From Benincasa hispida (taxonomy: Eukaryota > Streptophyta > Magnoliopsida > Cucurbitales > Cucurbitaceae): a stretch of DNA of 64,000 bases. The stretch's first letter is position 1. Each line of letters starts with the position of its first letter. A program made the position numbers and the translations under genes. The stretch covers positions 30,565,324 through 30,629,323 of the forward strand of contig NC_052349.1 of assembly GCF_009727055.1 (NCBI RefSeq). The letters run 5' to 3'. Below the pieces are notes generated by a model. The model ran no database searches and was not told the origin of the DNA. It worked only from the letters and a program-made list of their open reading frames with translations. This document shows positions 14,889-20,095 of the stretch, piece after piece.

Positions 14889-15867
14889 TGAAGGGCTATG
14901 AGGTCCAATGCAAAAGCGAAATCGTTCCCAAATTTTCAATTTCACATAATTAAAATATAGAGAACATAAATTATGCATAATCACATTTTTTTATAGCATG
15001 CTTTTGAAAGGAAGAAGAAGAGTTTAGATTTATGCTTACCCTTGAAGAACAAATTAATCTTCACGAAAAACCCTTCTTGATCTGATCATGAACACTCCGA
15101 CCTCCAAAAATCCACAACAACCCAAATGGCTACCACCACAAGAGAACCTCCTATATTCTTTTAAGGGATAAGAATAAGTAAGAGTGTGAGCCCTGTTATT
15201 TTTTGGGAGGGGGAGAAAATTTTGAGAGGAAAGGATTTTTACGAAGAAAATTGTGTTGGGAGAAGACACTCTATAATCTTCGGTGAAGAAGATGAATATA
15301 TATATATATTTTAAAAAAATCCCATTTTCATGTTTTTTTAGCAAGGAAAGAAACAACTCCCTCCTAAATTAAATTTTTTAAAAATTCATTTAATAAAAGT
15401 TTAACACACACACACATTAATATCTGTCTCTTATACACATCTAGATGTGTATAAGAGACAGATATAATATATATTAAACTATTTGTTATATCAAATATAA
15501 CACGTAACCTATAGTTTTTATATTATATCAAATACAATATAACCTATAGTTTGAATTTCTCTTAATAATACGTGGTATTTAATATAAATCAAAATTATAT
15601 TAAATTTAGTTATATGAATCCAATTCACATAATTAATATTTGAATCATATTCAAATATTTAATTCCTCTCAAAATAAACTTTATTTTATAATGTATCAAA
15701 TACATTATATTAATTTGAACAATTCAATTCAATCCAAAACTAATTCTCAATAATCCTTGTTGAGCTATAGATGGGATCTTATGGACCTATAGATTGAAAC
15801 TCCTATAGTACTTGAATAATTATTTAAATTTCTTTAATTAAATTATCTAAACTATCCAACATCCATT
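14889..15867 (-). mobile_element. Copia LTR fragment 1 of three
   Basis: Read on the minus strand it ends ...ATAGCCCTTCA at 14889, matching the ...CCTTCA ends of the solo LTRs, and sits inside MULE copy 1. Its 5' part is missing: homology stops at ATCCATT (15867), where the next LTR fragment begins. It contains an artificial adaptor at 15424-15461, so its two parts may not be contiguous in the genome. Confidence 0.72.
15424..15461. other. Nextera mate-pair junction adaptor (artefact)
   Basis: CTGTCTCTTATACACATCT is followed at once by its exact reverse complement. These are two Tn5 mosaic ends back to back, which is the circularisation junction of Illumina Nextera mate-pair libraries. It is synthetic and marks an untrimmed read or false join. 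Confidence 0.98.
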
Positions 15868-17379: not shown

Positions 17380-18437
17380 TGAAGAGTTCCATGAGCGCGT
17401 TCGGATCGCTCCAATTTCACAGTGACCAAAATGTACCATATACATTCAAATGCACAGTTATGCAAACAAACAGTAATTAACGGCATGCTTTGAACAAGAA
17501 ATAATAAGGAAGAGAGTTCTCATACCAGTTGAAGACGGTCTTCAAACTTTGGAACTCAACGTAGCAGAAGACCTCTACCCGATCAACCAGCGGCCAACAG
17601 ATGCGTTGACTACAGCAGCACGAACAACTGCACACACACGAATACCTGTCTCTTATACACATCTAGATGTGTATAAGAGACAGGTTTAGGGGCTGAGCGA
17701 CTATCGTATAGGCTCTCGATTTATTTAATCGATCGTTTATGTTTTCACACCAACGCAACCTTCGATCTTTTTCTTGAACCTTTTCGGAAAAAAAACTCTT
17801 CAAAATGAAACAAATTTCATTTTTATTCATCGGTTACAATAATTGACGTTGTTCCCACTAATGCACGTCCGAGCGAGATTTTGGGTTAATTATCATATAA
17901 TTAACCAATTAAATTATTAATAAATATAATCATATGATATTTTTATCCTATAGTTTGATATCACATATCTACTATAGTAATTTCTCCTCTACTTGATATA
18001 AATCATATTTATATCTAATTTCCTCCAAAATAATGTATCTCATACATTTAGCCAATTGCTCGTAAATACAGTTGGGCCAAATTTTTCATTTTACCCTTGT
18101 GGTTACATTTAACTTCTTAAGTACCATTGATCCCTCTAATGAATAATAAATCATAGTCTAACTATGACCAAAACCCCTCTCAGTCCAAGAGAGGGTGTGG
18201 TGCCACATTGCTCAAGCACCATAATCAACTCTTAAGGGAGAAATCTATCTACTTACCCCGACATTAGGGAAGGAGCGAATTCCATCTTATGTAGCTGTGT
18301 TCCCAGCTCCTCAATCAGAAGAATCTCCAAAATGGCAGGCTTCTTGAGTTGAAGATCTAGCCACTCTCACCCATACAAATCAAAGACCGCCTTCATAGGT
18401 AAGAGTTCAAAACTCACTCAAGATTCAGGTCATGTCA
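17380..18437 (-). mobile_element. Copia LTR fragment 3 of three
   Basis: The minus-strand 3' end (...GGAACTCTTCA) is at 17380. The body shows the same order of landmarks as the other LTRs and stops at ...AGGTCATGTCACCTA (about 18437), where plus-strand copia reverse transcriptase begins. The LTR start is therefore missing. An adaptor junction at 17646-17683 interrupts it, and sequence on either side may have been joined artificially. Confidence 0.7.
17646..17683. other. Second Nextera mate-pair junction adaptor (artefact)
   Basis: This is the same 38-bp structure as at 15424-15461: CTGTCTCTTATACACATCT followed by its reverse complement. Translation of its minus strand gives the peptide MCIRDR, a known signature of this contaminant. 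Confidence 0.98.
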
Positions 18438-19800
18438 CCTATAAAGCCAAACTTGTGGCAAAAGGTTTTACACAAAGGGAAGGGGTTGACTATGAAGAAA
18501 CTTTCTCTCTTGTTGCCGTGATAAAATCAATAAAAATACTTTTATCCATTTATGAATATTATGACTATGAAATACGACAAATGGATATCAAGACAGCTTT
18601 CTTGAATGGCCATATTGATGAAAGTATTTTCATGTCTCAACCAGAAGGGTTCATTGAACAGAGTCAAGAACAAAAAGTTTGTAAGCTTAAAAGATCCATT
18701 TATGGGTTAAAACAAGCTTCTAGATCCTAAAATATAATATTTGACACTCCGCTTAAGTCTTATGGCTTTAAACAAAATGTTGACGAATCTTGTGTATACA
18801 AGAAAACAGTCAACAAAACTGTAGCTTTCTTGATCCTTTATGTTGATGATATCTTGCTCATTAAGAATGAGACAAGTTTCCTTGCTGACGTAAAGAGATG
18901 ATTAGCATCACAATTCTAAATGAAAGATTTGGGAGATGCTTAAAACGTTCTTGGGATCCAAATTTTTCGAAATCGCTAGAATAGAACCTTAGCAGTATCT
19001 CAAGCATCTTATATTGACAAGATGTTGTCAAGATATAATATGCGAGATTCCGAAATGGGTACCTTTTAGACATGGAATTCATTTGTCGAAGGAGCAATGT
19101 CCTAAAATGCCTCAAGAAGTTGAGGAAATGAAAAAAAATTCCATATGCATCAACAGTTGGGAGTCTGATGTATGCTATGTTGTATACACGTCCTGACATA
19201 TGCTTTACAGTTAGAATCGTTAGCAGATTCCGATGTAACCCTTGATACAGTCTTGGACTGCTGTCAAGAACATCCTTAAGTATCTCCGAAGAATGAGGAA
19301 CTATATGCTTGTGTATGGGCCTCAGGATATGATCCTTATAGGATACGCTGATTTTAATTTTCGGACTGATGTAGATTCTAGGAAATCTACTTCAAGATCA
19401 GTTTTCACTCTTAACGGAGGAGCTATAGTGTGGAGAAGCATCAAACAGAGTTGTATAGCTAACTCCATGATGAAAGTAGAATATGTAGCTACATGTGAAT
19501 CAGCTAAAGAAGCAGTGTGACTGTGTAAGTTCCTATCGAATTTGGAAGTGTTTCCAAATATGCATCTGCACATTACCCTGTATTGTGACAACAACAGTAC
19601 AGTTGCCAATTCCAAGGAGTTCACAAACGCGGAAAACACATCGAAAGAAAGTACCATTTCATCAGGGAGATAATACACCAAGGAGACATGATAGTCACAA
19701 AGATAGCCTCAAAAGATAACCTTGTTGATCCGTTTACGAATGCCTTCTCGGCTAAAATGTACAAAGGCCACCTGATCAGTCTAGGACTACGAGCATCATA
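18438..19800 (+). pseudogene. Ty1/copia reverse transcriptase and RNase H, truncated
   Basis: Translation begins within RT at YKAKLVAKGFTQREGVDYEE. It continues through IRQMDIKTAFLNGHIDESIF, KLKRSIYGLKQASRS, a stop, then DESCVYKK and LYVDDILLI, the YVDD active site. RNase H follows (VKNILKYLRRMRNYMLVYG, DVDSRKSTSRSVF, KVEYVATCESAKEAV) and then the polyprotein end (RRKHIERKYHFIREI, DNLVDPFTNAF). Several stops and frameshifts are present. Gag, protease, integrase and the RT start are absent, replaced by a minus-strand LTR. It would copy element RNA to DNA if intact; here it is dead. Confidence 0.92.
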
Positions 19801-19819: not shown

Positions 19820-20079
19820 ATGTCAATGTGATATTGAGGCCCTAGTTTATTGTATTTTCTCTCAATTTTTCTCAACATTGTAAAACATTATATTTGTATA
19901 TTTGTCATGTCAATGTGAATTGAGGCCCTAGTTTATTGTATTTTCTCTCAATTTTTCTCAACATTGTAAAACATTATATTTGTATATTTGTCATGTCAAT
20001 GTGATATTGAGGCCCTGGTTTATTGTATTTTCTCTCATTTTTTCTCAACATTGTAAAATATTATATTTGTATATTTGTC
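19820..20079 (+). repeat. Triplicated 86-87 bp direct repeat before PPT
   Basis: Three head-to-tail copies (19820-19906, 19907-19992, 19993-20079) begin ATGTCAATGTGATATTGAGG and end TATATTTGTATATTTGTC. They differ by only a few bases (copy 2 lacks one base near its start). They lie between the copia stop codon and the polypurine tract. Confidence 0.95.
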
Positions 20080-20095
20080 TCACTAGAGTATTAGT

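What the first reader, a model, noticed from the sequence alone, without database searches (positions are those of the whole stretch)
15424..15461. Untrimmed Nextera mate-pair junction adaptor inside the assembly
The 38 bases are two Tn5 mosaic ends back to back (19 bases and their exact reverse complement), which is the synthetic circularisation junction of Nextera mate-pair libraries. In such reads, sequence on either side comes from opposite ends of a multi-kilobase fragment, so left and right may be falsely joined. It lies within an LTR, where repeat collapse would help it survive.
Basis: partly seen in the sequence, partly recalled or inferred. Interest (0 to 1): 0.8.

Follow-up and report, generated by a model that had tools for sequence, protein, structure and literature searches.

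The report
Sequencing adaptor left in plant genome
A 38-base piece of synthetic laboratory DNA was left inside a plant genome assembly (probably wax gourd), where it occurs about ten thousand times; at the sites that could be measured it stands in for a short stretch of real sequence or splits a short doubled one, so it is an artefact to correct and not biology.

Summary
Confirmed and an artefact. Positions 15424-15461 are the 19-base Tn5 mosaic end joined to its reverse complement, the Nextera mate-pair junction adaptor. The genome holding the window (912,946,352 bases, probably wax gourd B227) has 9,991 exact copies; the reversed control has 0. The same 38 bases sit in unrelated bacterial drafts. 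Flanking bases show a Tn5-like preference.

The second half of the reading, ends of a multi-kilobase fragment falsely joined, is not supported here. In other copies of the repeat both flanks lie in the same order and strand, a median of 324 bases apart at site 2 (28 of 29 loci) and 25 at site 1 (13 of 29). Two further sites replace about 103 and 146 bases. Thirteen of 30 examined sites instead double 10-215 bases (control 0 of 56). I infer that the self-complementary adaptor served as a false overlap that closed short gaps. One examined site shows no sign of a local join, and 12 of 30 are unresolved.

The parts
15424..15461 (.). site 1: 38-base junction adaptor (mosaic end plus its reverse complement)
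   Evidence: exact, self-complementary
17646..17683 (.). site 2: second identical junction adaptor
   Evidence: exact
15150..15423 (+). left flank of site 1, repeated sequence
   Evidence: 54 first-look candidates in the genome; 13 of 29 other loci place both flanks by the criterion used
15462..15761 (+). right flank of site 1, repeated sequence
   Evidence: 85% copy from 16416 on; collinear with the left flank in 13 of 29 loci, median 25 native bases between
17380..17645 (+). left flank of site 2, high-copy repeat
   Evidence: 4,676 first-look candidates, best copies 88-92%
17684..17983 (+). right flank of site 2
   Evidence: follows the left flank after a median of 324 native bases in 28 of 29 loci
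18443..18727 (+). piece of a Copia-type reverse transcriptase next to site 2
   Evidence: Pfam RVT_2, E 5.5e-32; that RVT_2 is the Copia type is recalled

Best explanation
The 38 bases are an untrimmed Nextera-type mate-pair junction adaptor built into the assembly (as well shown as sequence alone allows). Because the 38-mer is its own reverse complement (shown), a read running rightward into it and one running leftward into it share a perfect 38-base overlap whatever their genomic source. I infer that assembly or patching software took this for a real overlap and joined the two edges of a short unsolved gap. The outcome is a join without N in which native bases are missing (about 25 and 324 at the two window sites, as judged from other repeat copies) or, at other sites, a short stretch is doubled around the adaptor (shown). 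Which program made the joins is not known.
For: Exact self-complementary 38-mer, twice in the window; 9,991 copies in the genome, reversed control 0; same 38-mer in at least 120 stretches of bacterial genomes of unrelated genera; Tn5-like preference in 65 distinct flanks. Flanks collinear at short distance: site 2 in 28 of 29 loci, median 324 (288-375); site 1 in 13 of 29, median 25 (-20 to 108). Two other sites: 102-104 bases in 36 of 38 right-flank copies and a median of 146 in 32 of 34 left-flank copies, 28 of the 32 at 144-147. Doubling of 10-215 bases at 13 of 30 sites, control 0 of 56. Positive gaps cannot come from one intact junction in unique sequence, and a 10-base doubling (L197) is too short to be one circularised fragment. 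Adaptors cluster: 9 of 49 neighbouring spacings under 400 bases, expected 0.16. The presumed source project used five mate-pair libraries, ALLPATHS-LG and PBJelly (PMC6856369, passages).
Against: At C1:9706 the listed matches of the left and of the right flank never lie together (40 of 1,093 candidates scored), so not every join need be local. 12 of 30 examined sites are unresolved. In LTR repeats a fragment running from one LTR to another could imitate a short gap, and a natural deletion in this copy cannot be excluded. 16 of 29 loci for site 1 gave no measurement, among them L163 (right match starts only at base 58) and L173 (flanks on opposite strands). The source paper names mate-pair libraries, not Nextera. 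No raw reads were available.
Confidence: 0.8

Rival explanations
1. One reading: one intact mate-pair junction was assembled as read, so the left and right sides come from opposite ends of a 2-8 kb fragment.
For: Adaptor identity. At C1:9706 the listed matches of the two flanks never co-locate. The doubled flanks at 13 of 30 sites have the order that a short circularised fragment would give.
Against: Both window sites and two others are collinear at short positive distance in other repeat copies. No right-flank copy in the 9.5 kb upstream for 4 of 4 sites, nor a good one for the two window sites. Doubled stretches are 10-215 bases, far below 2-8 kb.
Confidence: 0.15
2. The same 38-mer was ligated as a ring adaptor to sheared DNA rather than added by transposase.
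For: Exactly this use and sequence are in print (PMC7357533, passages).
Against: Flanks show a Tn5-like preference: position 1 G in 32 of 65, position 4 C or T in 50, position 6 A or G in 53. Not all positions fit the recalled pattern: position 3 shows no T excess (18 of 65), position 9 has more G (25) than C (18), and positions 11, 13 and 14 deviate too.
Confidence: 0.06
3. A real genomic sequence: a Tn5-like insertion or a part of the LTR family.
For: Thousands of copies, and all five sites whose flanks were searched lie in repeated sequence.
Against: Absent between the flanks in all 41 LTR copies where both flanks were placed (28 for site 2, 13 for site 1). Identical in unrelated bacteria. 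The nine bases on the two sides differ at both sites, so no target duplication. The mosaic end is an engineered hybrid of the Tn5 ends (recalled).
Confidence: 0.01

Closest known systems
Nextera (Long) Mate Pair junction adaptor, as trimmed by NextClip and NxTrim
   Same: Two 19-base adaptors back to back, one the reverse complement of the other (PMC3928519, passages; NxTrim use in PMC6298255, passages).
   Different: Here it survives inside finished-looking sequence, with short missing or doubled stretches instead of a multi-kilobase jump at the measured sites.
The same adaptor left in bacterial draft assemblies
   Different: The plant genome alone holds 9,991 copies. In the bacterial loci the overlap test was less clean, 31 of 145 sites against 20 of 246 control places.
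Ligated ring adaptor of the same sequence (PMC7357533)
   Same: Identical 38 bases (passages).
   Different: Shearing and ligation would not give the Tn5-like preference seen in the flanks.

Membership tests
Nextera-type mate-pair junction adaptor | 19-base mosaic end joined to its exact reverse complement | tested here: met
   description in PMC3928519 (passages)
Nextera-type mate-pair junction adaptor | not tied to one organism or locus | tested here: met
   at least 120 stretches in bacterial genomes and 7 in viral contigs; 0 of 20,395 E. coli complete-genome records, 0 of 50,697 phage records, 5 of 72,556 plasmid records
Nextera-type mate-pair junction adaptor | fragment ends made by Tn5 (target preference) | tested here: met
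   65 distinct flanks: positions 1, 4 and 6 as recalled for Tn5 (p 2e-9, 2.4e-4, 2.6e-6); positions 3 and 9 fit poorly
Nextera-type mate-pair junction adaptor | such a library was used in the project | tested here: inconclusive
   five mate-pair libraries (2 and 8 kb) are named; 'Nextera' and 'adapter' occur 0 times in the main text (PMC6856369); supplements not read; that the genome is B227 is itself inferred
Intact single-molecule mate-pair junction (multi-kilobase chimera) | right flank lies upstream of the left by the insert size | tested here: not met
   not found for the two window sites or 4 of 4 others; collinear at short distance at both window sites
Natural Tn5/IS50 end or insertion | natural outer or inner end, and a 9-base target duplication | tested here: not met
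   end 12-mers of the recalled outer and inner ends not in the window; the nine bases on the two sides differ at both sites
Component of the LTR family | present at the same place in other copies | tested here: not met
   0 of 28 (site 2) and 0 of 13 (site 1) copies with both flanks placed

The most novel reading that the evidence does not exclude
The self-complementary junction adaptor acted as a universal false overlap that closed thousands of short gaps across a published crop reference. The joins carry no N, so later long-read gap filling would not have seen them, and each hides missing sequence (medians of 25 to 324 bases at the four measured sites) or doubled sequence (10 to 215 bases). 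Published contiguity would then rest partly on the adaptor.
Probability: 0.7. Interest if true: 0.4.

Novelty: not a real feature. Interest (0 to 1): 0.3.

Why it matters
It is not biology, but it matters to users of the assembly. About 380 kb of synthetic sequence (9,991 copies of 38 bases) is spread through the genome, and at the measured sites native sequence is missing or doubled around it. One reading frame of the adaptor is open and encodes VSYTHLDVYKRQ: in a search with a 52-residue frame through site 1, all 120 listed proteins (of 182 with E up to 10, among 280 candidates) contain those 12 residues, so the string marks adaptor-born protein predictions. If the genome is B227, for which 26,315 contigs are reported (PMC9905507, passages), breaking at the adaptor would add up to 9,991 breaks.

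Tried and rejected
Natural Tn5 ends and other library adaptors: end 12-mers were looked for in the window and only the mosaic end was found. Hairpin read-back: the flanks mirror each other by at most 3 bases at the 154 bacterial and viral sites; site 1 has 4 bases (read). Exact 30-mers of a flank recur within the locus at 54 of 133 usable bacterial and viral sites (one of them, L090, is a run that matches at every offset, probably N). The overlap test on bacterial loci was not clean (31 of 145 sites, 20 of 246 control places) and I do not lean on it; the control used overlaps up to 500 bases, the sites up to 1,500. A MAFFT alignment of site 2 with the copy near 56 kb was poor and was replaced by separate flank matches. 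A whole-genome search for a TruSeq adaptor and the flank search for L196 did not complete. Not found in print in the held library: the peptide (0 papers) and B227 with Nextera (0 papers); the 38-mer itself is in 1 paper, as a method. The search listings were not read beyond the papers cited.

Sampling and dropped rows. The 30 sites are in 26 loci: the first listed places of contig C1 up to 4.24 Mb (24 loci) and the two window sites; this is not a random sample. My notebook says 56 listed places; the right number is 50. For site 2, 29 of the 39 other matches were examined; one of the 28 measurements (L155) rests on a 46-base left match. For site 1, 29 other loci were examined and 13 met the criterion (left match to base 240 or beyond, right match from base 10 or before, 100 bases or longer). 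Of the 32 paired copies, two values (-27 and -10) come from partial left matches.

Full report
What was checked. Positions 15424-15461 are exactly the 19-base mosaic end followed by its reverse complement, and the 38-mer equals its own reverse complement. Chance expectation in the window is nil.

Scale. The window is C1:30565324-30629323 of a genome of 912,946,352 bases in 1,791 contigs, which holds 9,991 exact copies of the 38-mer and none of the reversed pattern. The single 19-mer occurs 10,766 and 10,764 times on the two strands, so 775 and 773 halves lack an exact partner. The total length agrees with the 912.95 Mb given for wax gourd (Benincasa hispida) B227 (PMC9905507, passages). I infer that this is B227. 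The contig number does not follow exactly from the published figures (2,197 scaffolds, 397 of them anchored to 12 groups; PMC6856369, passages), which would give 1,812.

Synthetic origin. It was not found in 20,395 E. coli complete-genome records or 50,697 phage records, and in 5 of 72,556 plasmid records. NextClip describes 19 bp adaptors joined by circularisation and looks for 34 of the 38 bases of the pair (PMC3928519, passages). The same 38 bases are also used as a ligated ring adaptor on sheared DNA (PMC7357533, passages). In 65 distinct flanks from this genome, position 1 is G in 32, position 4 is C or T in 50 and position 6 is A or G in 53. This fits the Tn5 target pattern as I recall it, though positions 3 and 9 fit poorly and positions 11, 13 and 14 deviate as well. 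I take tagmentation as the likelier source.

Where the flanks belong. For site 2 the left flank has many copies (4,676 first-look candidates, 40 scored), and 29 other loci were examined. In 28 of 29 the right flank follows on the same strand and in the same order, with a median of 324 native bases between (288-375). In 25 of these 28 the left match reaches within 3 bases of the adaptor's edge. For site 1, 13 of 29 loci gave a measurement, median 25 (-20 to 108). None of these 41 copies carries the 38-mer between the flanks. Two further sites were measured from listed matches: C1:586297, 102-104 bases in 36 of 38 right-flank copies, with one more copy at 66 bases; and C1:3202427, median 146 in 32 of 34 left-flank copies, 28 of the 32 at 144-147.

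Overlaps. In 26 loci with 30 sites, the two window sites included, 13 sites double 10-215 bases on the two sides of the adaptor, against 0 of 56 control places. Three of the 13 belong to one array with four adaptors at a period of 167 bases, C1:2861251-2861789. Of the 30 sites, 13 show overlaps, 4 have measured gaps (both window sites, C1:586297, C1:3202427), 12 are unresolved, and at C1:9706 the listed matches of the two flanks never lie together. For four sites (three of them unresolved, one C1:3202427) the first 100 bases of the right flank were not found in the 9.5 kb upstream. For the window sites the upstream part of the window gave nothing for site 2 and two weak inverted matches for site 1.

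Mechanism. Reading across one intact junction leads from the end of a fragment to its start, so the right flank should lie upstream of the left by the insert size. Positive gaps of about 25 to 324 bases cannot arise that way in unique sequence, and a doubling of 10 bases (L197) is too short to be one circularised fragment. I infer that two different molecules were joined on the self-complementary 38-mer. Adaptors cluster: 9 of 49 neighbouring spacings are below 400 bases where 0.16 are expected. The B227 project made contigs with ALLPATHS-LG, scaffolds with mate pairs and filled gaps with PBJelly (PMC6856369, passages). A join of this kind leaves no N and would escape gap filling (inferred). 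All five sites whose flanks were searched lie in repeated sequence, but the genome is reported as 75.5% repeats, so an enrichment in repeats is not shown.

Limits. No reads and no second assembly were at hand. In repeats, a fragment between two LTRs could imitate a short gap, and a natural deletion at site 2 cannot be excluded. Gaps can be measured only where other copies exist. The sites examined are the first ones listed on one contig and not a random sample.

Consequences. One frame of the adaptor is open and encodes VSYTHLDVYKRQ. A search with a 52-residue frame through site 1 gave 182 proteins with E up to 10 among 280 candidates; all 120 listed contain the whole string. Of these 120, 118 are single-member clusters, and 119 come from contigs under 5 kb; the exception is a hypothetical protein of an Enterococcus.

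Noticed in passing
G000:C1:2861251-2861789 (L202:1000-1538): Four adaptors in a row at a period of 167 bases (129 native plus 38), as if the assembly had gone round one loop several times.
   Followed up: partly
window 15409-15423 and 17631-17645: Both window adaptors follow a similar left edge, CACACACA, two differing bases, AATA and one more base. Unexplained; may be chance.
   Followed up: no
L217:349-386 and L218:343-380 (other copies of the repeat around C1:3202427): Diverged copies of one repeat (83% and 86%) carry an adaptor of their own; in L217 it abuts the right flank at exactly the same base as at C1:3202427, in L218 within about five bases. This may be a Tn5 cutting hot spot.
   Followed up: partly
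genome-wide in G000: 775 and 773 single 19-mers on the two strands have no exact partner, so halves or damaged adaptors remain beside the 9,991 pairs.
   Followed up: no
L032 and L108, L122, L127: The 38-mer also sits in records titled as chromosomes (CP051244.1, CP017948.1 'complete sequence', NZ_CP051236.1).
   Followed up: no
window 19833-20091: Tandem repeat of about 86 bases, three copies, two of them identical.
   Followed up: no
window 59855: A single N, the only one in the window; it may mark a minimal gap left by scaffolding.
   Followed up: no
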